A DNA stretch of 64,000 nt from Acidobacteriota bacterium (GTDB lineage: Bacteria > Acidobacteriota > Thermoanaerobaculia > Gp7-AA8): contig JAJPHC010000037.1 of assembly GCA_021325515.1 (NCBI GenBank), positions 186,001 to 250,000 of the forward strand. Direction: 5' to 3'. Within the stretch, counting starts at the first letter, position 1; each line of letters begins with the position of its first letter. The position numbers and the translations under genes were made by a program. The notes beneath the pieces were generated by a model. The model was not told where the DNA came from, ran no database searches, and saw only the letters and a list, made by a program, of their open reading frames with translations. This document shows, piece by piece, positions 3,768 through 63,267 of this stretch.

Positions 3768-4046
3768 TCATATCTCCTGCGTTCGGATTACATAGAGCCA
3801 CGCGAGATCGTCGATCACCGGCGTCGACGTAACATACGTTTCAATGGCTCCGTCCATTGCCACCAAAGTCTCGCTTGCCATTCCTGCGAACAGAGCGTCC
3901 GTCACTTGTGGACGCCACTGGCCAATCAATCTCTCGTGCTCTTGCTTCCCCCACGTGCGGAGTGCTTGCCGCGGAGACCGGCCGCGATACTGAGACACGT
4001 AGGTGCCGCCGCGAAACTCGAGGATGAATGTAAACAGCGATGACAT
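3768..4046 (-). CDS. Small uncharacterised protein (92 aa)
   Basis: I do not recognise a named family. The protein starts MSSLFTFILEFRGGTYVSQ and reads as a compact α/β domain rich in aromatic residues, with WGKQEHERLIGQW in the middle; there is no signal peptide or membrane segment. The frame is open upstream to 4124, but that part only translates the CCCCAGCG tandem repeat (GRWGAGALG), so the ATG at 4046 is chosen. It lies downstream of dgt on the same strand, separated by that array. Protein-like composition that changes abruptly at the array supports a real gene. Confidence 0.55.
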   Translation of the reverse strand: MSSLFTFILEFRGGTYVSQYRGRSPRQALRTWGKQEHERLIGQWRPQVTDALFAGMASETLVAMDGAIETYVTSTPVIDDLAWLYVIRTQEI

Positions 4047-4052
4047 AGTCTT

Positions 4053-4108
4053 CCCCAGCGCCCCAGCGCCCCAGCGCCCCAGCGCCCCAGCGCCCCAGCG
4101 CCCCAGCA
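4053..4108. repeat. Tandem array of CCCCAGCG (7 copies)
   Basis: Six perfect copies and one copy with a final-base change of an 8-base unit fill the gap between dgt and the small downstream gene. The high purity indicates a recent slippage-type array. Confidence 0.9.
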
Positions 4109-4114
4109 CCCACA

Positions 4115-5143
4115 TCACGCCCACGGCCGCGGCATGAACAGCTTCTCGTACAGGCTCAGCGCGTAGCGATCCGTCATTCCTGCGATGAAGTCGATCGCGA
4201 GTTGTTCCACCGGCTCCTCGCTCTTTTCGCTGAAGAACTCCGCGGGGTGCGTCGTCACATACTCGAACAGCGACGTCAGAATCCGCTGCGCCTTTTCGAA
4301 CTCGCCGCGGATCTCGCGGATCAGGTACATGTGCTCGAACATGTAGCGCCGCAGCTCTTCGAGTGCTTCGAGCACGTCCGCCGACATCATCACCGCTTCG
4401 TAGTCGCAGGCCAGGGTCTGCTCGATCACGTCGCGCACCATCCGGTCGATCCGCTGTGAGGCCTTGCGGCCGAGCGTGTCGCGAATCGGCTTCGGGATGT
4501 CGTTCTCGCTGATGATCCCGGCGCGGATGCCGTCGTCGATGTCGTGATTGACGTAGGCGATGATGTCCGAGATCCGGATGATGTCGCCCTCGAGTGTGAG
4601 CGCGCGCGCCTTCGGTCGCTTGCGCAGCAGCTCTCCCTTCTCACCCTTGGAGTGCTTGAGAATGCCGTCGCGCACTTCGACCGTGAGGTTCAGCCCCTTC
4701 CCGTCGTTCTCGAGATACTCGACGACGCGCACAGACTGGCGATAGTGATCGAATCCGCCCTTCACCAGTTTCGACAGCGCAGCCTCGCCTGCATGTCCGA
4801 ATGCGGAGTGGCCGAGGTCGTGGCCGAGGCCGATCGCTTCGGTGAGAACTTCATTGAGGCGGAGAGACTTCGCGATCGTCCGTCCGATCTGCGTCACCTC
4901 GAGCACGTGTGTGAGCCGCGTCCGATAGTGATCGCCTTCCGGAGCGAGAAACACCTGCGTCTTGTGCTTGAGACGCCGGAACGCCTTGCAATGAATGATG
5001 CGGTCACGGTCGCGCTGATAGGAGGGGCGAAGATCGTCCTCGGGCTCGCGGCGATCGCGCCCGCGCGTCTCGGCAGATTTCGCCGCGCGGGGAACGAGGG
5101 TGTCGTACTCGATCTTCTCGAGCATCTCGCGGATCGTAGTCAT
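4115..5143 (-). CDS. dgt: dGTP triphosphohydrolase-like HD-domain protein
   Basis: 342 aa metal-dependent phosphohydrolase that, by family, cleaves dNTPs to nucleoside and triphosphate and so adjusts dNTP pools. The N-terminal DRDRIIHCKAFRRLKHKTQV and YRTRLTHVLEV carry the first His of the HD site. The HD motif itself is in IGLGHDLGHSAFGHAGE. The length fits the shorter dGTPase-like subfamily rather than the ~500 aa E. coli Dgt. It begins with an ATG; the gap upstream (5144-5228) contains the 9-base repeat array. Substrate specificity within the family is not predictable here. Confidence 0.9.
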   Translation of the reverse strand: MTTIREMLEKIEYDTLVPRAAKSAETRGRDRREPEDDLRPSYQRDRDRIIHCKAFRRLKHKTQVFLAPEGDHYRTRLTHVLEVTQIGRTIAKSLRLNEVLTEAIGLGHDLGHSAFGHAGEAALSKLVKGGFDHYRQSVRVVEYLENDGKGLNLTVEVRDGILKHSKGEKGELLRKRPKARALTLEGDIIRISDIIAYVNHDIDDGIRAGIISENDIPKPIRDTLGRKASQRIDRMVRDVIEQTLACDYEAVMMSADVLEALEELRRYMFEHMYLIREIRGEFEKAQRILTSLFEYVTTHPAEFFSEKSEEPVEQLAIDFIAGMTDRYALSLYEKLFMPRPWA

Positions 5144-5179
5144 GGGAGCAGCATTGTAGATGCGACCTACGCCCGCCTA

Positions 5180-5231
5180 CCCATCGGTCCCATCCGTCCC
5201 ATCGGTCCCATCCGTCTCATAAGTCCCATCA
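5180..5231 (-). repeat. GATGGGACG/C-type 9-bp repeat array
   Basis: On the minus strand about five to six units of GATGGGACN lie between dgt and the acetyltransferase gene. The TGA stop of the acetyltransferase is itself part of the first unit (TGATGGGAC). It is one member of a dispersed family in this window. Confidence 0.85.
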
Positions 5232-5666
5232 CAACAGCAGTTCCATGAACCGCGAGCCCTCGATCGGATTGAACCGGTAAGCCTCGATCTCCCGAAAACC
5301 GAGCTCCTCGTAGAGTCGCATCGCCGCCTGCATCGACGGAAGGGTGTCGAGCCGCATGCGTTTGTAGCCGCGCGATCGCGCCTCGCCGATCAGCGTTTGC
5401 ACGAGCTCGTGGGCGATTCCGCGCCCGCGAAACGCCGGCCGCACGTAGAGCCGCTTCATCTCGCAACAATCGTCATCGATGCGGCGCAGCGCGACGCATC
5501 CAGCGATTCCATCCGGTTCGCGCGCCAGGAGCACGAGCTCGTAAAAGCTCCCCAGCGATGCGAGCTCTTCTTCGAGATGCTGGAAGGAGAGGTCGACGCC
5601 GAGCCCTTGCGCGTACTCGGCGATCAGTTCGCGGACCGGAGTGAGCTCGGCCGCCGCTGCGATCAC
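5229..5666 (-). CDS. GNAT-family N-acetyltransferase
   Basis: 145 aa single-domain acetyl-CoA-dependent acetyltransferase. The CoA-binding signature is present as VRPAFRGRGIAHELV (R/QxxGxG/A type), with the core strand CEMKRLYV before it. LYEELGFREIEAYRFNP is the typical C-terminal motif. The GTG start at 5666 overlaps the TGA of the PhzF-like gene by 4 bases and is in frame, so the two are translationally coupled. No export signal. The sequence resembles small GNATs described as amino-acid or antibiotic acetyltransferases; the substrate is unknown. Confidence 0.88.
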   Translation of the reverse strand: MIAAAAELTPVRELIAEYAQGLGVDLSFQHLEEELASLGSFYELVLLAREPDGIAGCVALRRIDDDCCEMKRLYVRPAFRGRGIAHELVQTLIGEARSRGYKRMRLDTLPSMQAAMRLYEELGFREIEAYRFNPIEGSRFMELLL

Positions 5667-6448
5667 GGCAGTAGTTCGCCGTGGAAGATCGTGACGGCCT
5701 GGCCGCCGAGCTTCACGCGATCGTCTTCGACGCGGACCCGCACGACGCCGCCGCGCTTCGACGCCTGAAACGCCGTCAACTCGTTCTTGCCGAGGCGCGA
5801 CGCCCAGTAGGGTGCGAGACAGCAGTGCGCCGAGCCGGTGACCGGATCTTCGTCGATGCCCGATCCCGGTGCGAAGAAGCGCGAGACGAAATCGTACGCA
5901 TCGCTCGACGAGCGGCTCGTCACGATGATTCCTCGCACAGGAATCGAGCGGAAGCGTGCGTGCGCGGGTGCGAGCGCGCGCAACTGCTCCTCCGAATCGA
6001 TCTCGATGATGTAATCGAACGCATTGCGTCCGACATATCGCGGCGACCGGATCCCGAGCGCGTCGAGCAGCTCGGGCGGAGCATCCGATTTCTCTTCCGG
6101 CTTCGACGGAAAATCGAGCTCGATCCAACCCTCGCCCTGCCGCCGCGCCGTCAGCCGTCCACTCTTCGTGTGGAACCAGAGCAGCTCATCCTGCTCGCCT
6201 TCCAGCCAGAGCGCATGCGCGGAGGCGAGCGTCGCGTGGCCGCAGAGATCGACTTCCACTGCCGGCGTGAACCAGCGCAGCGCGTAGCCGTCATCGCGCT
6301 TCAGCAGAAACGCAGTCTCCGAGAGATTCATCTCTGCCGCGAGGCTCTGCATCCACTCCGCGGTTCGAATCTTGTCGAGGATGCAGACGGCGGCGGGGTT
6401 GCCGCGGAACGGCTCGGAAGTGAAAGCATCGACCTGATAAATGCGCAT
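5663..6448 (-). CDS. PhzF-family isomerase-like protein
   Basis: 261 aa, full length for the PhzF/diaminopimelate-epimerase fold. The first half has MRIYQVDAFTSEPFRGNPAAVC and NLSETAFL, whose Glu is the family's catalytic acid. The second half has GSGIDEDPVTGSAHC, the substrate-binding P-loop-like signature. PhzF isomerises trans-2,3-dihydro-3-hydroxyanthranilate in phenazine synthesis. No other phenazine genes are nearby, so this is probably a housekeeping homologue of unknown substrate. ATG at 6448 is taken instead of a GTG one codon upstream. It is followed by the overlapping acetyltransferase. Confidence 0.88.
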   Translation of the reverse strand: MRIYQVDAFTSEPFRGNPAAVCILDKIRTAEWMQSLAAEMNLSETAFLLKRDDGYALRWFTPAVEVDLCGHATLASAHALWLEGEQDELLWFHTKSGRLTARRQGEGWIELDFPSKPEEKSDAPPELLDALGIRSPRYVGRNAFDYIIEIDSEEQLRALAPAHARFRSIPVRGIIVTSRSSSDAYDFVSRFFAPGSGIDEDPVTGSAHCCLAPYWASRLGKNELTAFQASKRGGVVRVRVEDDRVKLGGQAVTIFHGELLP

Positions 6449-6511
6449 CACGACACCACGAAAAGGTGGAGGGACCGCGCGGCCGCGGCCCCTCGCACCG
6501 GCGTAACCAGG

Positions 6512-7297
6512 CTAGAAGCCCTGGACCTTCGTCGATTTTCCGTACAGCAGTCGCGTGGCGACGAAGCCGGCGATCACGACGCCGAGCGCGCAAACGTCGC
6601 GCATCGGATTCGAGTACATCGTCGGATAGTGATTGCTGATCATGAAGAAGACGAGCGGCACCGACATGTACGTGTTGTGCCGCGAGCGAAGACCGGCGAT
6701 CTTCACTTCCGGCGAGTCGGCCGCCAGCGGGTTGCCTTCCTTCAGTGCTGTGATGATCTTCTTCTGATTCGGCCAGATCACCATCCAGACGTTCATCGCC
6801 ATCATCGTGCCGAACGTGCCGCCGAGATGGATGTACAGCGAACGGCCGCCGAAGTGGCCGACATGCTCGAGCAGCAGATAGGCGCCGGCCAGCAGCACGA
6901 GGCAGATCGCAGCGGCGACATCCTTGTTCGCGAGCGCTTTCATGATCGCGTTGTAGACGACGAAGCCGACGCCCCAGATCACGAGCACCACGAAGAGCCA
7001 CAGCCAGGGATTGCCTTCCTTATCCTGCTCGAACAGCACGCCGCGCGTCTGGTAGTAGATGAGACCGACCAGCAGAACGCCGGTGATCCAGGTCCACGCT
7101 GCGCCCCAGCGGAACCAGAAGAGAGCGCGCGGCATGAGCTCGGGGTTGACTGCCTTTTTCGTCGGTCCATCGATCTTTCCCTGAAATGGGCCGTTGACCC
7201 AGTTGAAGAAATAGAGATGGCCGATCCAGGTAATGCCTGCAACGACGTGCGCCCATCGGAAGAAGAGCTGCAGAAACGTATTCACAACACTCGGCAT
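6512..7297 (-). CDS. Urate hydroxylase PuuD-type membrane protein (N-terminal domain only)
   Basis: 261 aa polytopic membrane protein with about seven hydrophobic helices. It matches the urate-oxidase N-terminal membrane domain (as in PuuD): RWAHVVAGITWIGHLYFFNWVNGP at the start, then HVGHFGGRSLYIHLGGTFGTMMAMNVWMVIWPNQKK. Histidines in the first and middle helices could bind haem. PuuD oxidises urate with a C-terminal cytochrome c domain; here the protein ends after the membrane part (KSTKVQGF) with no CxxCH, and no cytochrome is adjacent. It may donate electrons to another partner, or its substrate may not be urate. ATG start with a good upstream GAGG. Confidence 0.8.
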   Translation of the reverse strand: MPSVVNTFLQLFFRWAHVVAGITWIGHLYFFNWVNGPFQGKIDGPTKKAVNPELMPRALFWFRWGAAWTWITGVLLVGLIYYQTRGVLFEQDKEGNPWLWLFVVLVIWGVGFVVYNAIMKALANKDVAAAICLVLLAGAYLLLEHVGHFGGRSLYIHLGGTFGTMMAMNVWMVIWPNQKKIITALKEGNPLAADSPEVKIAGLRSRHNTYMSVPLVFFMISNHYPTMYSNPMRDVCALGVVIAGFVATRLLYGKSTKVQGF

Positions 7298-7367
7298 AGC
7301 CTCTCCTCAAGAAACTTTGATGTCAGTTCGGGTTGTCGGATAGCCTCGGCGATTATATGAGGGATCG

Positions 7368-8057
7368 ATGACGGGTGAATTCGAAGGACAAGTAGCGATT
7401 GTCACCGGCGCCTCGGCCGGCATCGGCCGGGCGACCGCCGAGCTGCTGTGCGAACGGGGTGCGAAGGTCGCTCTCTTTTCGCGCCAGCTCGAAGACAAAG
7501 TGGAGAGCCGACGTCTCGTCCGCTCCGGCGACATTACGAACGAGTCCGACGTCGAGCGCCTCTTCGCCGACACCGAAGCGCTCCTCGGGCCGTGCGATCT
7601 GCTGATCAACAACGCCGGCGCGATCGAGCCGGCGCTGCTGCACGAGATGAGCATCGATGCCTGGGAACGGACCTTCGCGGTGAACGTGCGCGGCGCATTC
7701 CTCACCTGCCGCCGCGCGCTTCCGGCGATGATCGCCCGCCGGAAGGGGACCATCATCAACGTCGCCTCGATTTCCGGAGTGATCGGTCCCGGGAAGTTTC
7801 CCGGCTTCACCGCCTACTGTGCGAGCAAGGCGGCACTGATTTCGCTGACCGAATCGCTGGCGGTGGAAGTGAAGGAACATGGCATTCGCGTGAACTGCGT
7901 CAGCCCCGGCTCAGTCGACACGAAGATGTGGGCGGATGTGAGCGGCGGAGCTCCGGCAGCGATGACGCCGCGCGAGATCGCCGAAGCGATTGCGTTCCTC
8001 GCAGGAGAAACATCGCGGCCGATGAATGGACAGAATCTGAATGTCTGGTCCGTTTGA
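7368..8057 (+). CDS. SDR-family NAD(P)-dependent oxidoreductase
   Basis: 229 aa classical short-chain dehydrogenase. It shows the nucleotide loop TGASAGIG (about residues 13-20), NNAGA in the middle, catalytic Ser in NVASISG, and the Tyr-x3-Lys pair in AYCASKAA. The C-terminus MNGQNLNVWSV matches the FabG-like pattern (xxGQxLxVDGG) without the final Gly pair. It is the first gene of a long plus-strand run; its last 17 bases overlap the alanine racemase start. FabG-like carbonyl reduction is possible but the substrate is unknown. Confidence 0.88.
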   Translation: MTGEFEGQVAIVTGASAGIGRATAELLCERGAKVALFSRQLEDKVESRRLVRSGDITNESDVERLFADTEALLGPCDLLINNAGAIEPALLHEMSIDAWERTFAVNVRGAFLTCRRALPAMIARRKGTIINVASISGVIGPGKFPGFTAYCASKAALISLTESLAVEVKEHGIRVNCVSPGSVDTKMWADVSGGAPAAMTPREIAEAIAFLAGETSRPMNGQNLNVWSV

Positions 8058-9108
8058 GCGTCCCACGTGGGCCGAGATCGACCTCGGCGCCTTCTCGCGC
8101 AACATCGATGCGATCGTGCGCCGGCTGCCGCAGGGCTCGCGTCTGATCGCGGTGCTGAAGGCGAACGGGTACGGGCATGGCGCGATCGAGCTCGCGCGGA
8201 AATGCGATCGCGAGCGCGTTGCGATGATCGCCGTCGCGCTCGTCGAAGAAGCGATCGAGCTGCGGCGCGCCGGCATCGAGCTGCCGATCCTCGTGCTCGG
8301 TCCGGCGAGCCACATCGATGTCGCGCTCGATCACGCCATCACGCTCGGCGTCACCGGGCCGGAAGAGCTCGCCGGTGTTTGCGAAGCCGCGCTGCATCGC
8401 GACGTCGGGATTCACCTGAAGCTCGACAGCGGCATGGGCCGCATGGGTGTCGTCGAGAGTGAGCTGCCGCGCGTGATCGAAATGATCCGCAACGCGCCGC
8501 GGCTGCACATCGATGGGATCTACACGCATCTCGCCAACGCGGACGAGCCGGGCGATTCGTACAGCGCGATGCAGCTCGCGAATTACGAGCGGATGCTGCA
8601 GGCGCTGCGCGAGGCCGGGATCGATGCGCCGCTGCATCACGTCGCGAACAGCGCTGCGGCGCTGCGCGGATTGGTGAAGCCTGGCGACTTCGCGCGCGCC
8701 GGCATCGCGCTCTACACGCTCTCGCCGGTGATGTGCTGGCGGACGCAGATCGTGCGCGTGAAGACGTTGCCGCGCGGCGCCGCGATCGGCTACGGCACGA
8801 CGTTCCACACGCAGCGCGAGAGCCGGATCGCGACTCTGCCCGTCGGCTACGCAGACGGATACCGGCGCGCGTTCTCGAACAATGCCGAAGTGCTCGTGCG
8901 CGGGAAGAGGGCGCCGGTGGTGGGGCGCGTGTCGATGGATCTGGTGACGATCGACGTGACCGACATCGACGCGCGGTATGGCGATGAAGTCGTGCTCCTC
9001 GGAGAATCGATCAGCGCGGACGAGCTGGCGGCGAAAGCCAATACAATCTCGTACGAGATCTTCTGTGGTGTGAGCGCGCGCGTGCCGCGGCGGTATCACG
9101 AGACATGA
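8041..9108 (+). CDS. alr: Alanine racemase
   Basis: 355 aa PLP enzyme that makes D-alanine for peptidoglycan. The PLP-binding lysine is Lys40 in LKANGYGHG; the opposing catalytic tyrosine is Tyr251 in IGYGTTF. VGYADGYRRAFSN and VGRVSMDLVTIDVT are further Alr signatures of the C-terminal β-domain. Length is normal. It starts within the SDR gene and its TGA overlaps the ATG of mlaE (ATGA), so it is embedded in a tightly coupled operon. Confidence 0.96.
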   Translation: MSGPFERPTWAEIDLGAFSRNIDAIVRRLPQGSRLIAVLKANGYGHGAIELARKCDRERVAMIAVALVEEAIELRRAGIELPILVLGPASHIDVALDHAITLGVTGPEELAGVCEAALHRDVGIHLKLDSGMGRMGVVESELPRVIEMIRNAPRLHIDGIYTHLANADEPGDSYSAMQLANYERMLQALREAGIDAPLHHVANSAAALRGLVKPGDFARAGIALYTLSPVMCWRTQIVRVKTLPRGAAIGYGTTFHTQRESRIATLPVGYADGYRRAFSNNAEVLVRGKRAPVVGRVSMDLVTIDVTDIDARYGDEVVLLGESISADELAAKANTISYEIFCGVSARVPRRYHET

Positions 9109-9875
9109 CTGCCGTACTCGAGCTTCTCGGCTACTACTTCCTGAACGTCTTCGAGCAGACGGGGCTCTGGTTCCGCATGCTCTGGCGGACGATTCGCTGG
9201 ACGTTCCGCCGCCCGTTCGAGCCGCGCGAGTGGCTCCGGCAGATGGTGCGGCTCGGCTGGGACTCGATCCCCGTCGTCTTCCTCACCTCGATGTTCACCG
9301 GCATGGTGCTCGCGCTGCAGACGTTCAACGGATTCCAGCGCGTGCATGCGGAGAACTTCGTCGGCAGCGTCGTCGCGCTGGCGATGTTGCGCGAGCTCTC
9401 GCCGGTGCTCGTCGGCCTGATGGTGACGGGCCGCGTCGGCTCGTCGATGGCGGCGGAGATCGGCACGATGCGCGTGACGGAACAGATCGACGCGCTGAAG
9501 GCGCTCGCGACGGATCCCGTGCAGTATCTCTTCGTGCCGCGCGTGATCGCCGGCATCGTCATGCTCCCGTTCCTCGTCGTCCTCGGCGACGCGCTCGGAA
9601 TCGGCGGCGGCTATCTCGTCGCCGTGAAACTGATGAACGCGAATTCTGTGCTCTACGAACAGAACACGTATCAGTTCCTGGAGCTGAATGACATCTGGAG
9701 TGGCTTGATCAAGGCCGCGGTGTTCGGATTGATCCTGACGCTCACCGGCTGCGTCCGCGGCTACTACACGCGCGGAGGTGCCGAAGGTGTGGGCCGCGCC
9801 ACGACGAATGCGGTGGTCAGCGCGTCGCTGATCATCCTCTTTACCGATTTCTTTTTGACGAAGCTGTTGTTTTAG
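9105..9875 (+). CDS. mlaE: MlaE-family ABC transporter permease
   Basis: 256 aa inner-membrane permease of the Mla type, which moves phospholipids between the membranes. Characteristic features are the N-terminal amphipathic helix region, VFLTSMFTGMVLALQ, ELSPVLVGLMVTGRVGSSMAAEIGTM and VTEQIDALKAL (the conserved MlaE stretch near residues 100-135). Five or so membrane helices follow. The start overlaps alr, and the ATPase partner mlaF follows after 34 bases. No MlaD (MCE) substrate-binding gene lies in this window, so that subunit must be elsewhere. Confidence 0.93.
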   Translation: MTAVLELLGYYFLNVFEQTGLWFRMLWRTIRWTFRRPFEPREWLRQMVRLGWDSIPVVFLTSMFTGMVLALQTFNGFQRVHAENFVGSVVALAMLRELSPVLVGLMVTGRVGSSMAAEIGTMRVTEQIDALKALATDPVQYLFVPRVIAGIVMLPFLVVLGDALGIGGGYLVAVKLMNANSVLYEQNTYQFLELNDIWSGLIKAAVFGLILTLTGCVRGYYTRGGAEGVGRATTNAVVSASLIILFTDFFLTKLLF

Positions 9876-9909
9876 GGGTGCGGGGGAGCGCCCGCGAGAC
9901 CGCGCAACC

Positions 9910-10692
9910 ATGATCTCTCTCCAGCACTTGTATAAAGCGTTCGGACCGAAGCAGGTCCTGAACGACATGTCGCTCGACGTCGAGCGCGGCGAGTCCGTCG
10001 TCATCGTCGGCGGCTCGGGCACCGGCAAGAGCGTCACGCTGAAGCACATCATCGGCCTGCTGCGGCCCGACAAGGGGAAGGTCATCATCGACGGGACCGA
10101 CATCTGCACGCTGAATCCCGTCGAGCTGAATGCGTTTCGGCGCCGCTTCGGAATGGCGTTTCAGGAAGGTGCGCTGTTCGATTCGATGTCGGTCTTCGAG
10201 AACATCGCCTTTCCACTGCGCCGCCACACGAAGATGACGGAGGAGCAGATCCGTGCGCGAGTGGAGGAGTGTCTGGCGCAGGTGCATCTCGAGCTTTCCG
10301 CGGGGGACAAGAGGCCGTCTGAACTGTCGGGCGGCATGCGGCGCCGTGTCGGATTCGCGCGCGCGATCTCGCTCAAGCCGGAGATTCTGCTGTTCGACGA
10401 ACCGACCACGGGCCTCGACCCGGTGATCAGCGACGTCGTCGCAGAGCTGATCTGCGAGATGGACCGGACGCTGAACACGACGACGGTGACGATCACGCAC
10501 GACATGAAAGTCGCGTTCAAGATCGCCGATCGCGTGGCGATGTTGTTTCAGGGCCAGATCATCGAGCAGGGAACGCCGGAGGTTTTCCAGCAGTCCTCGA
10601 ACGAGATCGTGCAGCAGTTCATCGAAGGACGCGCGGAAGGCCCGCTGACGGAGATCGAGACGGTCGACCGCCGCAAGCGCCTCCGCGAATAA
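9910..10692 (+). CDS. mlaF: MlaF-family ABC transporter ATPase
   Basis: 260 aa ATP-binding subunit for the adjacent permease. Walker A GGSGTGKS (about residues 35-42), Q-loop FQEGALFDSMSV, signature LSGGMRRRVGFARA, Walker B ILLFDEPTTGLDP and switch His in VTITHDM are all intact. The GALFDSMSVFENI sequence after the Q-loop is typical of MlaF rather than of other ABC ATPases. It is followed by a 44-base palindromic repeat and then xseA. Confidence 0.94.
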   Translation: MISLQHLYKAFGPKQVLNDMSLDVERGESVVIVGGSGTGKSVTLKHIIGLLRPDKGKVIIDGTDICTLNPVELNAFRRRFGMAFQEGALFDSMSVFENIAFPLRRHTKMTEEQIRARVEECLAQVHLELSAGDKRPSELSGGMRRRVGFARAISLKPEILLFDEPTTGLDPVISDVVAELICEMDRTLNTTTVTITHDMKVAFKIADRVAMLFQGQIIEQGTPEVFQQSSNEIVQQFIEGRAEGPLTEIETVDRRKRLRE

Positions 10693-10696
10693 ACGT

Positions 10697-10740
10697 CCCC
10701 CTCGCCCCGCAAAGCGGGGAGAGGGGTCAGGGGTGAGGGG
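10697..10740. repeat. GC-rich palindromic element (copy 1)
   Basis: CCCCGC-AAA-GCGGGG forms a 6-bp stem and is followed by GGGTCAGGGGTGAGGGG. A second copy of the whole ~44-base element lies inside apbE at 39697-39740. It occupies most of the mlaF-xseA gap and is a dispersed repeat; it may also act as a weak terminator hairpin. Confidence 0.8.
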
Positions 10741-10763
10741 TTGCCGCACGATAGACTTCCCCG

Positions 10764-12053
10764 GTGCGCACCTTCACCGTCAGCGATCTGATCCGCCAGA
10801 TCAACCTCGACCTCTTCAAATACAACGACATCTCCGTCGAAGGCGAGGTCTCGAACTTCACGCGCTCCAGCGCGGGTCACTGCTACTTCTCGATCAAGGA
10901 CGCCAAGGCATCGATTCGCGTCGTTCTCTTCGCGACCAATGCCCGCTTCCTGAAATTCCGGATCGAGAACGGGCTGCAACTGATTGTTAGAGGGCGGCTC
11001 ACGATCTATGAGCAGAAGGGCGAGTTCCAGCTCAATGCGACGGCGGCGGAGCCGGCCGGCCTCGGTGCGCTGCAGCTCGCATTCGAGCAGTTGAAAAAGC
11101 AGCTCGCGGCGGAAGGCCTATTCGACGCCGCGCGGAAGAAGCCGATTCCAATGCTGCCGCAGCGCATCGCGATCGTGACCTCGCCCACCGGCGCGGCCAT
11201 CCGCGATGTGCTCAACGTGATGGGCCGCCGCTTCGAGTCGATGCATCTGCAGATCTACCCGGTGCGCGTGCAGGGCAACACGGCGGGGCGCGAGATCGCC
11301 ACGGCCGTGCGGCATCTCTCTCGCTGGGAGCTGCACGACGTCGTTCTGATCGTGCGCGGCGGAGGCTCGCTCGAAGACCTCTGGGCGTTCAACGAAGAGC
11401 AGGTCGCGCGCGCCGTGGCCGAGTGCACGATTCCGACGATCTCCGGCGTCGGCCACGAGACCGACTTCACGATCTGCGACTTCGTTGCAGATCTGCGCGC
11501 GCCGACTCCATCCGCCGCCGCGGAGATCGTCGTGCGCGCGAAGAACGAGATCTGCATGCACGTCGACGCCGATCTGCGGCGCATCCGGCACGTCGTCGAA
11601 TCGCGCGTGCGCAACTACCGCCACGAGCTGCGGCATCTCACGTCGTCGGACCGGCTGTACGCATTGCCGCGCCGGATCGCATTCGCACGCGAACGGCTGG
11701 AGCGCCGGAGGCTGACGCTGTTTCGTCTGCTCGACGTGCAGGCGAAGATTCTTCGACGCCGCCTGGCCGCAACCGAAGAGCCGCTCGCGCGGTTTCCGGC
11801 GCGCATCGTCAAGCGGCGCGAGGCGCTGATGTCCGTCGCCGGACATCTACAGGCTGTATCGCCGCTGTCCGTTCTCTCCCGCGGTTACGCGATCGCGTTC
11901 TCGCGCACCAAGCGCGGGCGCAAACCCATTTTCGACAGCAATCAGGTGGCCATCGGCGACCGCATCGAAGTGCAGCTCAAGAAGGGCCGCCTCGAATGCA
12001 GTGTTGACGGGAAGACGATGGGGCTGGAGACTGTCTGGCCTGGTAACGAGTGA
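10764..12053 (+). CDS. xseA: Exodeoxyribonuclease VII large subunit
   Basis: 429 aa catalytic subunit of the single-strand exonuclease ExoVII used in repair. The N-terminal OB-fold (RTFTVSDLIRQINLDL... VEGEVSNFTRSSAGHCYFSIKD) is followed by the catalytic core with RIAIVTSPTGAAIRDV, IVRGGGSLEDLWAFNEE and GVGHETDFTICDFVADLRAPTPSAAAE. A coiled-coil region and the C-terminal segment SPLSVLSRGYAIAF complete it. Start is GTG at 10764. The stop overlaps the xseB start (TGATG), the usual coupling of the two subunits. Confidence 0.97.
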   Translation: MRTFTVSDLIRQINLDLFKYNDISVEGEVSNFTRSSAGHCYFSIKDAKASIRVVLFATNARFLKFRIENGLQLIVRGRLTIYEQKGEFQLNATAAEPAGLGALQLAFEQLKKQLAAEGLFDAARKKPIPMLPQRIAIVTSPTGAAIRDVLNVMGRRFESMHLQIYPVRVQGNTAGREIATAVRHLSRWELHDVVLIVRGGGSLEDLWAFNEEQVARAVAECTIPTISGVGHETDFTICDFVADLRAPTPSAAAEIVVRAKNEICMHVDADLRRIRHVVESRVRNYRHELRHLTSSDRLYALPRRIAFARERLERRRLTLFRLLDVQAKILRRRLAATEEPLARFPARIVKRREALMSVAGHLQAVSPLSVLSRGYAIAFSRTKRGRKPIFDSNQVAIGDRIEVQLKKGRLECSVDGKTMGLETVWPGNE

Positions 12054-12313
12054 TGGCCTCCCAATCCAACGAATTCGAGAAGTCCTTTCAGCAACTCGAG
12101 GAGATCGTAAAACGTCTCGAGGGAGAGAATCTCCCGCTCGACGAAGCGCTGCAGCTCTTCGAAGAGGGGATCCGCCTCTCGCGCTTCTGCAATCAGAAGC
12201 TCGAGGAGGTCGAGAAGAAGATCGAATTGATCCTCGCCGACGCGAAGGGTCAGCCGCGCGTGCAACCCTTCGAAGCGGAAGACGAGGAAGAGTCAGACGA
12301 TCGTGACGATTGA
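12053..12313 (+). CDS. xseB: Exodeoxyribonuclease VII small subunit
   Basis: 86 aa helical hairpin protein that binds many-to-one to XseA. It shows the family signature FEKSFQQLEEIVKRLEGENLPLDEALQLFEEG and LCxxKLxxxE-like CNQKLEEVEKKIELIL, plus an acidic tail (EAEDEEESDD). The ATG overlapping the xseA stop is chosen over a GTG one codon before. Its end overlaps the ispA start by 11 bases. Confidence 0.95.
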   Translation: MASQSNEFEKSFQQLEEIVKRLEGENLPLDEALQLFEEGIRLSRFCNQKLEEVEKKIELILADAKGQPRVQPFEAEDEEESDDRDD

Positions 12314-13214
12314 CGAGTATCTGAAATCGCGCCGCGCGATGGTCGAGGCCGCGCTCGAGCGCGAGTTGCCGCCGGCGAATACTCCTCCCGCCGTCATTCA
12401 CGAGGCCATGCGCTACGCCGTGCTCGGCGGCGGCAAGCGCATTCGTCCGATCCTCGCGATCGCGGCGGCCGAGGCATGCGGCGCGAAGATCGAGCCGCTG
12501 CTCAAGGCGTTCTCATCGCTCGAGCTGATTCATACCTACTCGCTCGTGCACGATGATCTGCCTGCACTCGACAACGATGATCTGCGGCGCGGACGCAAGA
12601 CGACGCATGTCGTGTTCGGTGAAGCGATGGGAATCCTCACCGGCGATGCGCTGCTGACCGAGGCGTTCTCGTGGCTCGCAGCTCCGGTCGAAGGGGTTGA
12701 TGCCTCGCGACAGTTGCGTGCGATCGCGGAAGTAGCGCGCGCGGTCGATTCGACCGGAATGATCGGCGGCCAGGTCGCCGATCTCGAAGCGACGATCGGT
12801 GGAGCGCGGACGCCGCGTCCACACGGCGCGGACGACGTCTCCGCCCTCCTCTTCATCCACCGCAACAAGACGGGCAAGCTGCTCACGGCGTCCGTCCTCC
12901 TCGGCGGAATCCTCGCCGGTGCAGACGACGACGAGCTCGCCACGCTGAGGCGATACGGCGAAGCGACCGGCCTCGCCTTCCAGATCGTCGACGATCTGCT
13001 CGATATCGAAGAGAGCGCTGCGACCCTCGGCAAGACCGCCGGCAAGGATGTCGAGCAGGGAAAGCTCACCTATCCCGCCCTCATGGGCGCCGAAGCCGCA
13101 AGGGCCGAGGCGGGGCGGCTCCTCGGGGAGGCCGTGGCCAACGCTGATATGATCAAAGGTCCGCTGAACTATCTGGCGGCGATCGCGCGTTTCATCTGCG
13201 ATCGCCGTTCATAG
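12303..13214 (+). CDS. ispA: Polyprenyl (farnesyl/geranylgeranyl) diphosphate synthase
   Basis: 303 aa E-type prenyltransferase condensing IPP with allylic diphosphates. The first aspartate-rich motif is DDLPALDNDDLRRG (from Asp84), the second is DDLLDIEE; LGGGKRIRP binds IPP. The two extra residues in the first motif (DDxxxxD) are typical of bacterial FPP synthases. GTG start overlaps xseB. The gene order xseA-xseB-ispA-dxs-tlyA is a widely conserved block, so the product probably feeds isoprenoid carriers made from DXS-derived precursors. Confidence 0.95.
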   Translation: MTIDEYLKSRRAMVEAALERELPPANTPPAVIHEAMRYAVLGGGKRIRPILAIAAAEACGAKIEPLLKAFSSLELIHTYSLVHDDLPALDNDDLRRGRKTTHVVFGEAMGILTGDALLTEAFSWLAAPVEGVDASRQLRAIAEVARAVDSTGMIGGQVADLEATIGGARTPRPHGADDVSALLFIHRNKTGKLLTASVLLGGILAGADDDELATLRRYGEATGLAFQIVDDLLDIEESAATLGKTAGKDVEQGKLTYPALMGAEAARAEAGRLLGEAVANADMIKGPLNYLAAIARFICDRRS

Positions 13215-13235
13215 CTAACGGCGCAACGGACTGAT

Positions 13236-15143
13236 ATGGCTCGACTTCTCGACAGCATCAACTCGCCAATCGACTTGCGCAAACTCGATCGGCGCCAGCT
13301 CCCGCAGCTTGCGCAGGAGATCCGCGACATGATCATCGACACCGTGTCGAGGATCGGCGGGCACTTCGGCGGCAATCTCGGCATCGTCGAGTTGACGCTC
13401 GCGCTGCATTACATCCTCGACACGCCGCGCGACCAGATCGTCTTCGACACGGGTCATCAGTCATATCCGCACAAGCTGATCACCGGCCGCCGCGATACGT
13501 TCCATACGATCCGCCAGCACAACGGCATCTCCGGATTCTGCAAGCGCGAAGAGTCGGAGTACGACGTCTTCAACGCGGGCCATGCCTCGACCTCGATCTC
13601 CGCCGCGCTCGGCATCGCGGTCGGACGCGATTTCCGCAACGAGGACTATCACGTCGTCGCCGTCATCGGTGATGGCGCGCTCTCGGGCGGGCTCGCACTC
13701 GAGGGGCTCAATCAGGTCGGCCATCTCAAGCGGAAGATGATGATCGTGCTCAACGACAACGACATGTCGATCTCGACGAACGTCGGAGCGATGTCGGGCT
13801 ACCTGAACTCGATCATCAAAGGTCAGCGCTACAACCAGCTCAAGGATCTCGCGAAGGGTGTGATGGACCGCATCCCTCTCGTCGGCGGCAAGCTGCACGA
13901 GGTCGCGCACGATGTCGAGCATCTGCTGAAGAACATGGTCGTGCCGGGAACTCTCTTCGAGGAGCTCGGCATCAAGTATCTGGGGCCGTATGACGGCCAC
14001 GATCTGCCGGCGCTGCTGGAGATCATCGAGAAGAACAAGGACTACAACGGCCCCATCCTCATTCATGTCATCACGAAGAAGGGGAAGGGCTACGAGCACG
14101 CGGAGAACAAGCCGATCTGGTCGCATGGCGTCACGCCATTCGACATTCCGTCGGGCGAGGTGAAGAAGCCTTCGACGCCGCAGCCGCCGTCGTACACGGG
14201 CATGTTCGCCGATACGCTGATCGAGCTCGGCAAGCGCGATCCGAAGATCGTCGCGATCACCGGCGCGATGCCCGAAGGTACGGGCCTCGACAAGTTCGCG
14301 AAGGTCTTTCCGGATCGCATGTTCGACGTCGGCATCGCGGAAGAGCATGCCGTGACGTTTGCCGGCGGCATGGCGACGCAGGGGATGAAGCCGATCGCCG
14401 CGATTTACTCGACCTTCCTGCAGCGCGCGTTCGATGAAGTGTTCCACGACGTCGCGATCATGGATCTGCCGGTTGTCTTTGCGCTCGATCGCGCGGGCAT
14501 CGCCGGCCAGGATGGCCCGACGCATCACGGCATCTACGACATGGCGTATTTGCGCGTCTTCCCGAACATGATCTGCATGGCGCCGAAGGACGAGAACGAG
14601 TTGCGGCACATGCTGAAGACCGCGTTCGAGACGGGACATCCGACGTCGCTGCGCTATCCGCGCGGCAACGGCATGGGTGTGAAGCTCGATCCGGAGCTGC
14701 TGTCGCTGCCGGTCGGCAAGGGCGAAGTCATGCGCGAAGGAGATGCGGCGACGATCTTCGCGATCGGCAACGAAGTGTGGCCTGCGGTGCATGCAGCGGA
14801 GATGCTCGCCGCAGAGGGCATGGAAGTCGCGGTCGTGAACGGCCGCTTCATCAAGCCGCTCGATGATGAGCTGATCCGGCGCTTCTGCAAGCCGGGGACG
14901 AAAGTCATCACGGTCGAAGAAGGCTCGCTGGCGGGCGGTTTCGGCTCCGCGGTGATGGAGCGCTGCGAAGAGCTCGGCCTCGCGAACGTGCAGTTCCATC
15001 GCATCGGCATTCCTGACGAGTACGTGCACCACGGCGCGCAGGATGTGCTGCGCGCGCAGTACGACCTGCACGCCGAGGGGATTGCGAAGCGGGTGCGCGA
15101 GTTCGTGAACGTGGCGGCGTTTTCCAGCGCTGCAGCGCGGTGA
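13236..15143 (+). CDS. dxs: 1-deoxy-D-xylulose-5-phosphate synthase
   Basis: 635 aa TPP enzyme, first step of the MEP isoprenoid pathway (pyruvate + glyceraldehyde-3-phosphate). Seen are GHQSYPHKLITGR, FNAGHASTSISAALG, the TPP/Mg motif VIGDGALSGGLALEGLN...LNDND, GKGYEHAE, and the transketolase-like EEHAVTFAGGMA with the proton-relay Glu. Full length for the family. It lies 21 bases after ispA; its stop overlaps the tlyA GTG start. Confidence 0.97.
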   Translation: MARLLDSINSPIDLRKLDRRQLPQLAQEIRDMIIDTVSRIGGHFGGNLGIVELTLALHYILDTPRDQIVFDTGHQSYPHKLITGRRDTFHTIRQHNGISGFCKREESEYDVFNAGHASTSISAALGIAVGRDFRNEDYHVVAVIGDGALSGGLALEGLNQVGHLKRKMMIVLNDNDMSISTNVGAMSGYLNSIIKGQRYNQLKDLAKGVMDRIPLVGGKLHEVAHDVEHLLKNMVVPGTLFEELGIKYLGPYDGHDLPALLEIIEKNKDYNGPILIHVITKKGKGYEHAENKPIWSHGVTPFDIPSGEVKKPSTPQPPSYTGMFADTLIELGKRDPKIVAITGAMPEGTGLDKFAKVFPDRMFDVGIAEEHAVTFAGGMATQGMKPIAAIYSTFLQRAFDEVFHDVAIMDLPVVFALDRAGIAGQDGPTHHGIYDMAYLRVFPNMICMAPKDENELRHMLKTAFETGHPTSLRYPRGNGMGVKLDPELLSLPVGKGEVMREGDAATIFAIGNEVWPAVHAAEMLAAEGMEVAVVNGRFIKPLDDELIRRFCKPGTKVITVEEGSLAGGFGSAVMERCEELGLANVQFHRIGIPDEYVHHGAQDVLRAQYDLHAEGIAKRVREFVNVAAFSSAAAR

Positions 15144-62120: not shown

Positions 62121-62134
62121 CTATCGCTGAGGCA

Positions 62135-62255
62135 GTGAAGAGTGACGAGTGAAGAGTGAAGGAAGAGTGAAGAGTGAAGAGTGAAGAGTGACGAGTGAAG
62201 AGTGAAGAGTGAAGAGTGAAGAGTGACGAGTGAAGAGTGAAGAGTGAAGAGTGAC
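62135..62255. repeat. Heptanucleotide array GTGAAGA/GTGACGA (about 17 units)
   Basis: Seventeen or so 7-base units, with the C-variant (GTGACGA) recurring every fifth unit from unit 8 to unit 13, giving a 35-base higher-order period. An inverted tail of related units follows at 62261-62290. It fills the gap between eno and the rhodanese gene. Confidence 0.9.
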
Positions 62256-62292
62256 CTACTCATCACTCGTCACTCATCACTCGTCACTCTCT

Positions 62293-62748
62293 TCAATTAG
62301 GCCCTGTTGCCGTCGGCAGGCCTGCGGCGGTCCACTCGTTCCAGCCGCCGGCGAGTGCGGCGGCGTTCTTGAATCCGTGCGCCTCGAGGTCGACGACGGC
62401 CAGTGCCGCCGTGTGCTCGCGTACGCAGGCGCAATACGTGATCACGTATTTGCCGGCGGGGATTTCGCGGAAGCGTGCGATCAACTGGCTGCGAGGCACG
62501 CTGATCGCCCCTTTGATGTGGCCTTTGCTGTACGTCTCGAACGAGCGGATGTCGACGAAGACGGCCTTGCCCGATTTCACGAGCTGAATCGCCGCATCGC
62601 GCGGAATCCGCCGCGCGGTTTCCCATGATCCGGGCTGGACCCGCTGCGGTTGTGCCGCACCCTGAGGCGTGTTCCCCTGAACCTTCAGTTGCGCGCTCGC
62701 CGCGGTCGCGGCGAGAAGCGCAATCAACATCATCGTCGTACGTCGCAT
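62293..62748 (-). CDS. Exported rhodanese-like protein (Cys form)
   Basis: 151 aa. Signal peptide MRRTTMMLIALLAATAASAQ, then one rhodanese domain: AVFVDIRSFETYSKGHIKGAISVP, YVITYCACVREHTA, AALAGGWNEW. The active-site loop starts at Cys108, two residues after Cys106; this pair (CAC) is the site where the neighbour has Cys and TGA. It probably handles persulfide or thiol chemistry in the periplasm. It lies 21 bases downstream of the stop of the Sec-candidate paralogue on the same strand. Confidence 0.92.
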   Translation of the reverse strand: MRRTTMMLIALLAATAASAQLKVQGNTPQGAAQPQRVQPGSWETARRIPRDAAIQLVKSGKAVFVDIRSFETYSKGHIKGAISVPRSQLIARFREIPAGKYVITYCACVREHTAALAVVDLEAHGFKNAAALAGGWNEWTAAGLPTATGPN

Positions 62749-62769: not shown

Positions 62770-63267
62770 CTATTTCTTCGTTTCTTTCTCGGTCTTGGCC
62801 GTCGGGAGGTTCTTCGCCCTCCACTCGTTCCATCCACCGAGGAGACACGCTACGTTCTTGATGCCGTGAGCATTGAGATCAAGCACCGCACGGGCGCTGG
62901 TGTGCTCGGCCACTCAAGCACAGTAGGTGATGATGAACTTGTTTTTTGGCAGCTCCTTCTCGCGCGCAGCGAGCTCGGAGAGAGGGATGTTGATCGCGCC
63001 CTTGATGTGCTCCACATCGTACGAATCCTTCGGGCGCACATCGACGAAGATGGCCTTGTGCTGCTCCACCATCCGGATCGCTTCATCCTGCTTGATCCGG
63101 CGCGCAGACTCGAGCGACGGTTCGGCAGGAGCGGGTGCGGGAGTGAGTGTTGCAGTCGAAGTTGCGTTGCTGTTGATGGCGGGCTGTGGCGCCGTCTTCA
63201 TCTGTCCCCAGGCCAATCCTGCGGTGAAGAGCGCCGCTGCTGCGGCTGCTGCTGCCGGAATACGCAT
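62770..63267 (-). CDS. Exported rhodanese-like selenoprotein candidate (in-frame TGA)
   Basis: 165 codons if TGA is read through. A signal peptide (AAAAAAAALFTAGLAWG) and rhodanese domain (AIFVDVRPKDSYDVEHIKGAINIP, FIITYCA) match the neighbouring protein. At codon 118 (62914-62916) a TGA stands exactly where the paralogue has catalytic Cys108. Beyond it the frame continues VAEHTS...LNAHGIKN...LLGGWNEWR, as in the paralogue, up to TAG at 62770. Strong ribosome site (AGGAGG) before the ATG at 63267. A hairpin sits right after the TGA. Selenocysteine insertion is the best explanation; a nonsense mutation is the alternative. Confidence 0.8.
62881..62907 (-). promoter_or_regulatory. Candidate bacterial SECIS hairpin
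   Basis: Six codon positions after the TGA the mRNA can pair GAGCAC with GUGCUU (6 bp, one G-U), with possible inner GC/GC pairing around a small GCCCGU loop beginning with G. The loop lies about 20-25 bases after the UGA, within the usual window for bacterial SECIS elements. Fold not computed. Confidence 0.45.

What the first reader, a model, noticed from the sequence alone, without database searches (positions are those of the whole stretch)
62770..63267. Probable selenocysteine in the catalytic position of an exported rhodanese
Seen: codon 118 is TGA, and codons after it keep the frame and align residue for residue with the neighbouring rhodanese (YCA-TGA-VAEHTS versus YCAC-VREHTA; then AHGIKN versus AHGFKN, GGWNEW in both) until TAG at 62770. 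Relative to canonical rhodaneses such as the MoeB C-terminal domain here (YCRMGGRS), the distance to the conserved GF and GG motifs places the TGA exactly at the catalytic Cys. Replacement of a catalytic Cys by Sec is the hallmark of selenoproteins; Sec-containing rhodanese-like proteins have been predicted in bacteria. An annotator would truncate the gene at 62914 or call a pseudogene.
Basis: partly seen in the sequence, partly recalled or inferred. Interest (0 to 1): 0.92.

Follow-up and report, generated by a model that had tools for sequence, protein, structure and literature searches.

The report
Exported rhodanese carrying a Cys-x-Sec motif
This bacterial gene looks broken by a stop codon but almost certainly reads that UGA as selenocysteine, giving an exported sulfur-handling enzyme with a Cys-x-Sec active-site pair; the kind is already known, but this branch is missed by the standard annotation model.

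Summary
Codon 118 of the minus-strand gene at 62770-63267 is TGA, and the frame stays open to TAG. The genome has selA, selB, selD and a tRNA-Sec(UCA). Eleven orthologues, in this and ten other genomes of its family, all carry one TGA at the same codon. Across 31 genes examined the motif is always Y-C-x-U, and all seven Cys copies of this family read Y-C-x-C. Downstream codons are under purifying selection (pN/pS 0.29). Codons +6 to +10 are almost frozen synonymously (pS 0.04 against 0.58 upstream and 0.69 in the Cys copies), where a bacterial SECIS-type hairpin sits 14-32 nt after the UGA. So this is a selenoprotein gene, not a pseudogene. The Sec has the spacing to the helix and GG motif of a canonical catalytic Cys. 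However, an invariant Cys two residues earlier occupies the strand-end position of that same residue, so the active site is a CxU pair in a loop two residues longer. CxU rhodaneses are known (review form 3, NCBIfam NF041203 rhodanese_LYCAU). This one scores 82 bits against a cut-off of 115. It is a new, unannotated branch of a known kind.

The parts
62770..63267 (-). Sec-containing rhodanese gene, 165 residues, TGA at codon 118, stop TAG
   Evidence: Pfam PF00581 70.3 bits
63278..63283 (-). AGGAGG, likely ribosome-binding site 10 nt before the ATG
   Evidence: read from sequence
63205..63267 (-). signal-peptide-like N-terminus (about residues 1-21, hydrophobic Ala-rich, then GQMK)
   Evidence: judged by eye from the translation; relatives keep a similar hydrophobic start ending in AQ; no signal-peptide program was run
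62812..63090 (-). rhodanese domain (residues 60-152)
   Evidence: Pfam; AF2 model pLDDT 87.6, VIA Z 18.0 to 3tp9
62920..62922 (-). Cys116, first residue after the strand, strand-end position of the catalytic Cys; invariant
62914..62916 (-). TGA codon 118 read as selenocysteine (C-x-U motif)
62881..62899 (-). SECIS-type hairpin, 14-32 nt after the UGA: stem AGCGCC / GGUGCU in this gene, loop CGUGC starting 21 nt after the UGA
   Evidence: synonymous codons +6 to +10 nearly frozen
62293..62748 (-). tandem Cys copy (YCAC), starts 21 nt after the Sec gene, ends in TGA used as a real stop
   Evidence: tree places it in a Cys clade among Sec rows

Best explanation
The gene encodes an exported single-domain rhodanese in which UGA-118 is decoded as selenocysteine by the organism's SelB/tRNA-Sec system, directed by a hairpin just downstream. 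Shown computationally: conserved in-frame TGA, Cys/Sec pairs, complete machinery, selection on the downstream protein, and frozen synonymous codons at the hairpin. Inferred mechanism (about 0.4 on its own): Cys116 and Sec118 form a C-x-U redox pair in the rhodanese active-site loop. The selenol attacks a sulfane sulfur or disulfide on an envelope substrate. Cys116 then resolves the intermediate as a Se-S bond, which a periplasmic thioredoxin-like donor re-reduces, making the enzyme a persulfide or disulfide reductase, or a sulfur carrier. The Cys twin next door is a selenium-independent version. The confidence below is for the selenoprotein claim.
For: selA, selB, selD and tRNA-Sec(UCA) present in a 99.8% complete genome. 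SelD itself has an in-frame TGA in its GGUACK motif. One TGA at the same codon in 11 of 11 orthologues; in 31 genes always Y-C-x-U; all seven Cys copies of the family are Y-C-x-C. pN/pS downstream of the TGA is 0.29, against 0.42 upstream. Synonymous divergence at codons +6 to +10 is 0.04, against 0.58 upstream in the same genes and 0.69 at the same place in the Cys copies. The hairpin lies 14-32 nt after the UGA with a G in the first two loop positions, fitting the bacterial SECIS rules quoted in PMC13188914. A model of UGA plus hairpin finds two strong sites in the 5.4 Mb genome, both TGA rhodaneses, and not the Cys copy. C116, C/U118 and E121 are invariant in 30 aligned sequences. Rhodanese fold is clear. 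TGA is a normal stop elsewhere, for instance in the Cys copy.
Against: No protein or 75Se data. Compensatory base changes in the hairpin are not above shuffles, because the sequence hardly varies. In this particular gene a competing fold is as stable, and the hairpin energy alone is not unusual. The redox chemistry, substrate, partner and export are inferred.
Confidence: 0.95

Rival explanations
1. A pseudogene or sequencing error: the TGA is an ordinary nonsense mutation in a dying rhodanese copy, backed up by the intact Cys twin.
For: An intact paralogue lies 21 nt downstream.
Against: The same TGA is in 11 separately assembled genomes and in more distant rhodanese groups, with no TAA or TAG inside the domain. 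Downstream protein is under purifying selection.
Confidence: 0.01
2. The UGA is read through or suppressed as another amino acid (Trp, Cys or Arg), or UGA is reassigned in this organism.
For: Frame is open beyond UGA; full Cys homologues exist.
Against: TGA ends other genes, including the neighbouring Cys copy. A complete Sec pathway with tRNA-Sec(UCA) is present. The frozen hairpin sits only in TGA genes.
Confidence: 0.02
3. Sec protein, but a classical sulfurtransferase: Sec118 simply replaces the catalytic Cys and carries the sulfane sulfur, and Cys116 is accessory. (A rival on mechanism, within the selenoprotein reading.)
For: Sec to GG is 26 residues and the helix starts at Sec+4, just as Cys to GG is 26 and the helix starts at Cys+4 in the MoeB domain. 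The loop-end residue at +5 is Thr or Ser in the Sec genes, a residue class used at that place by known rhodaneses (PMC8533005).
Against: Cys116 is invariant and directly follows the strand, as the catalytic Cys does. The two-residue insertion and C-x-[UC] pairing in all relatives suggest both residues matter.
Confidence: 0.35
4. Cys116 is the sulfur-carrying residue and Sec118 tunes or resolves it. (A rival on mechanism, within the selenoprotein reading.)
For: Strand-end register and upstream spacing put Cys116 on the canonical catalytic Cys; the best PDB alignment puts the gap after it.
Against: Evolution puts the costly Sec at 118, which usually marks the nucleophile (general knowledge of selenoproteins).
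Confidence: 0.25

Closest known systems
NCBIfam NF041203 rhodanese_LYCAU, rhodanese-related (seleno)protein; 'rhodanese-like domain-containing protein form 3, CxU' in PMC13188914
   Same: Rhodanese fold, C-x-U motif (YCAU), best family match for both the Sec gene and its Cys twin.
   Different: 82.3 bits (Sec read as Cys) against a curated cut-off of 115, so the model does not claim it. In 247 genomes of the phylum only one is over the cut-off.
TsoB rhodanese/DsbD fusion-like selenoprotein, NF045694
   Same: Contains a rhodanese-like domain with Sec; weak match 34.5 bits.
   Different: 572-position double selenoprotein model with UxxxxU; this gene is a single exported domain with CxU.
Rhodanese selenoproteins form 1 (UxxS) and form 2 (UxxG)
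   Same: Sec in a rhodanese domain.
   Different: Different motifs, as listed in PMC13188914; no Cys at -2 in the listed motif.
GlpE, PspE and MoeB-type rhodaneses
   Same: Same fold (1gmx Z 15.4) and domain size.
   Different: Cys-only; the MoeB domain in this window has a loop two residues shorter, of CRxGGR type.

Membership tests
Bacterial selenoproteins | In-frame UGA aligned with Cys in homologues | tested here: met
   31 TGA genes Y-C-x-U versus Y-C-x-C homologues
Bacterial selenoproteins | Sec biosynthesis and decoding genes in the same genome | tested here: met
   selA, selB, selD, tRNA-Sec UCA
Bacterial selenoproteins | SECIS hairpin directly downstream of the UGA | tested here: met
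   Hairpin position and loop fit the published rules; synonymous codons frozen. Covariation test uninformative.
Bacterial selenoproteins | Selenium found in the protein | not testable with these tools
   needs 75Se labelling or mass spectrometry
Rhodanese domain (PF00581) | Profile score over the gathering cut-off and rhodanese fold | tested here: met
   70.3 bits versus 22.2; VIA Z 18.0 to 3tp9
NF041203 rhodanese_LYCAU equivalog | Score over the curated cut-off of 115 bits | tested here: not met
   82.3 bits
NF041203 rhodanese_LYCAU / review form 3 | C-x-U motif in a rhodanese loop | tested here: met
   YCAU
Thiosulfate sulfurtransferase (rhodanese activity) | Transfers sulfane sulfur from thiosulfate | not testable with these tools
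   enzyme assay needed

The most novel reading that the evidence does not exclude
A phylum-wide set of unannotated CxU rhodaneses (exported, and fused to DedA membrane domains) forms an envelope selenium-based persulfide or disulfide redox system in which a rhodanese fold works as a two-residue selenol-thiol oxidoreductase instead of a sulfurtransferase.
Probability: 0.35. Interest if true: 0.65.

Novelty: new member of a known kind. Interest (0 to 1): 0.42.

Why it matters
It settles that a gene which annotation would truncate is very probably a real selenoprotein gene. It also shows that the public model for CxU rhodaneses misses nearly all of this phylum's members: 1 of 247 genomes is over the cut-off, while 37 of the 52 best matches contain a single TGA. 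Sec and Cys versions lying side by side give a natural pair for measuring what selenium buys in a rhodanese.

Tried and rejected
Pseudogene and code reassignment were tested and rejected. Covariation in the hairpin was tried and is uninformative, because the pairs hardly vary. Folding energy of this single hairpin is not distinctive. The second tRNA-Sec hit on C10 is a tRNA-Ser. Presence or absence of selB could not be correlated with the Cys or Sec form, since 57 of 61 relatives have selB over the cut-off. Weaker hairpin-model hits in the genome (L092, L093, L095, L101) were read and show no clear selenoprotein. Three alignment rows were first taken in the wrong frame and those alignments were replaced. 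The organism could not be named: the only named relative found is a Pyrinomonadaceae MAG at 41% identity that also has YCSU, so Acidobacteriota is likely but not shown.

Full report
What is there. The minus-strand frame 63267-62770 starts with ATG behind an AGGAGG, has a signal-peptide-like N-terminus and a rhodanese domain, and carries TGA as codon 118 (62914-62916), after which it runs on for 47 codons to TAG. Pfam places residues 60-152 in PF00581 at 70.3 bits when the Sec is read as Cys. Twenty-one bases further on begins an intact Cys version, 62293-62748, which itself ends in TGA.

Is the TGA decoded? The genome (5.38 Mb, 99.8% complete) has selA (473.6 bits), selB (373.6 bits) and selD (375.8 bits), all over their cut-offs, plus a tRNA-Sec with anticodon UCA. 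SelD lies on the same contig, about 40 kb beyond the window end, and has its own in-frame TGA in GGUACK. A search of 60 relatives found the ten best matches (54-65% identity, ten genomes of the same family) all with a single in-frame TGA at the same codon. A second group (YCTUPAEESS) and a third (YCTUPNEASS, partly DedA-fused) have the TGA at the same motif position. In 31 TGA genes read, the motif is always Y-C-x-U; every Cys copy of this family is Y-C-x-C.

Selection. By Nei-Gojobori counts over 11 Sec orthologues, pN/pS is 0.42 upstream of the TGA and 0.29 downstream, so the downstream part is translated and kept. Codons +6 to +10 (AGC GCC CGT GCG GTG) show pS 0.04, against 0.58 upstream and 0.69 in the Cys copies at the same place. 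That is a constraint on the RNA, and it coincides with a hairpin 14-32 nt after the UGA whose loop starts 21 nt after it with a G among the first two bases, as bacterial SECIS rules require. The hairpin is paired in 87% of cells over 29 sequences against 26-52% for slid controls, but compensatory changes are not above shuffles, so covariation gives no support either way. In this gene a rival fold of similar energy exists. A model of UGA plus hairpin finds only two strong sites in the genome, this gene (54.1 bits) and a DedA-rhodanese fusion on contig C3 (52.3 bits), and not the Cys twin. Because both are in the training set, this shows specificity more than discovery. In ten related genomes the strong sites that could be matched to genes already read are all TGA rhodaneses, and none is a Cys copy.

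Which residue is catalytic? In the MoeB rhodanese domain of this window the strand ends one residue before Cys, the helix starts at Cys+4, and Cys to GG is 26. In the Sec protein the strand ends one residue before Cys116, the helix starts at Sec118+4, and Sec to GG is 26. So the loop has two extra residues. Counted from the strand, Cys116 is the catalytic position; counted from the helix, Sec118 is. C116, C/U118 and E121 are invariant over 30 sequences. I take it as a C-x-U pair, with Sec118 the more likely nucleophile and Cys116 the resolving partner. That step is inference.

Evolution. In a tree of 30 sequences the seven Cys copies form one group (support 85/88, a moderate value) among Sec rows, which fits one duplication followed by Sec-to-Cys change. 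Three genomes keep both versions (G000, G005, G010).

Compared with what is known. Sec rhodaneses have been predicted in bacteria since 2005 (PMC1088965), and the 2026 review lists five forms; form 3 is CxU, NCBIfam NF041203. That model is the best match here, 82.3 bits for the Sec gene and 70.4 for the Cys twin, but below its cut-off of 115. In 247 genomes of the phylum, 110 have a match at 1e-12, one is over the cut-off, and of the 52 best matches 37 hold exactly one TGA and none holds TAA or TAG (counted by hand; the six-frame search reads stops through, which lowers the scores somewhat). So the kind is known, this branch is new to the annotation models, and no functional study of a CxU rhodanese turned up in the papers held.

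Noticed in passing
G000 contig C3:34050-34391 (L061, L091): A DedA(VTT)-rhodanese fusion with YCTU-PNEASAARV and the same hairpin is a second Sec rhodanese in this genome. DedA-rhodanese fusions are known, with the rhodanese link unexplained (PMC10127716); no paper found reports Sec in them.
   Followed up: partly
G000 contig C2:290240-291178 (L026): selD with an in-frame TGA (GGUACK), a Sec-type selenophosphate synthetase, about 40 kb past the window end.
   Followed up: partly
window 62134-62289: A 7-bp tandem repeat (about 18 copies of AGTGAAG, then a variant array) between the rhodanese pair and enolase.
   Followed up: no
L076 (G009), around 3900-13750: The order Sec rhodanese, eno, MarR-like gene, GGDEF protein, glycerate kinase is shared with the window; in G009 the other side holds sufBCD and an Rrf2-type regulator (named by eye).
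   Followed up: no
G203:C19:110909-111670, G130:C5:38463-39413, G177:C134:14321-16313: Neighbouring pairs of rhodanese matches in which both members contain one TGA.
   Followed up: no
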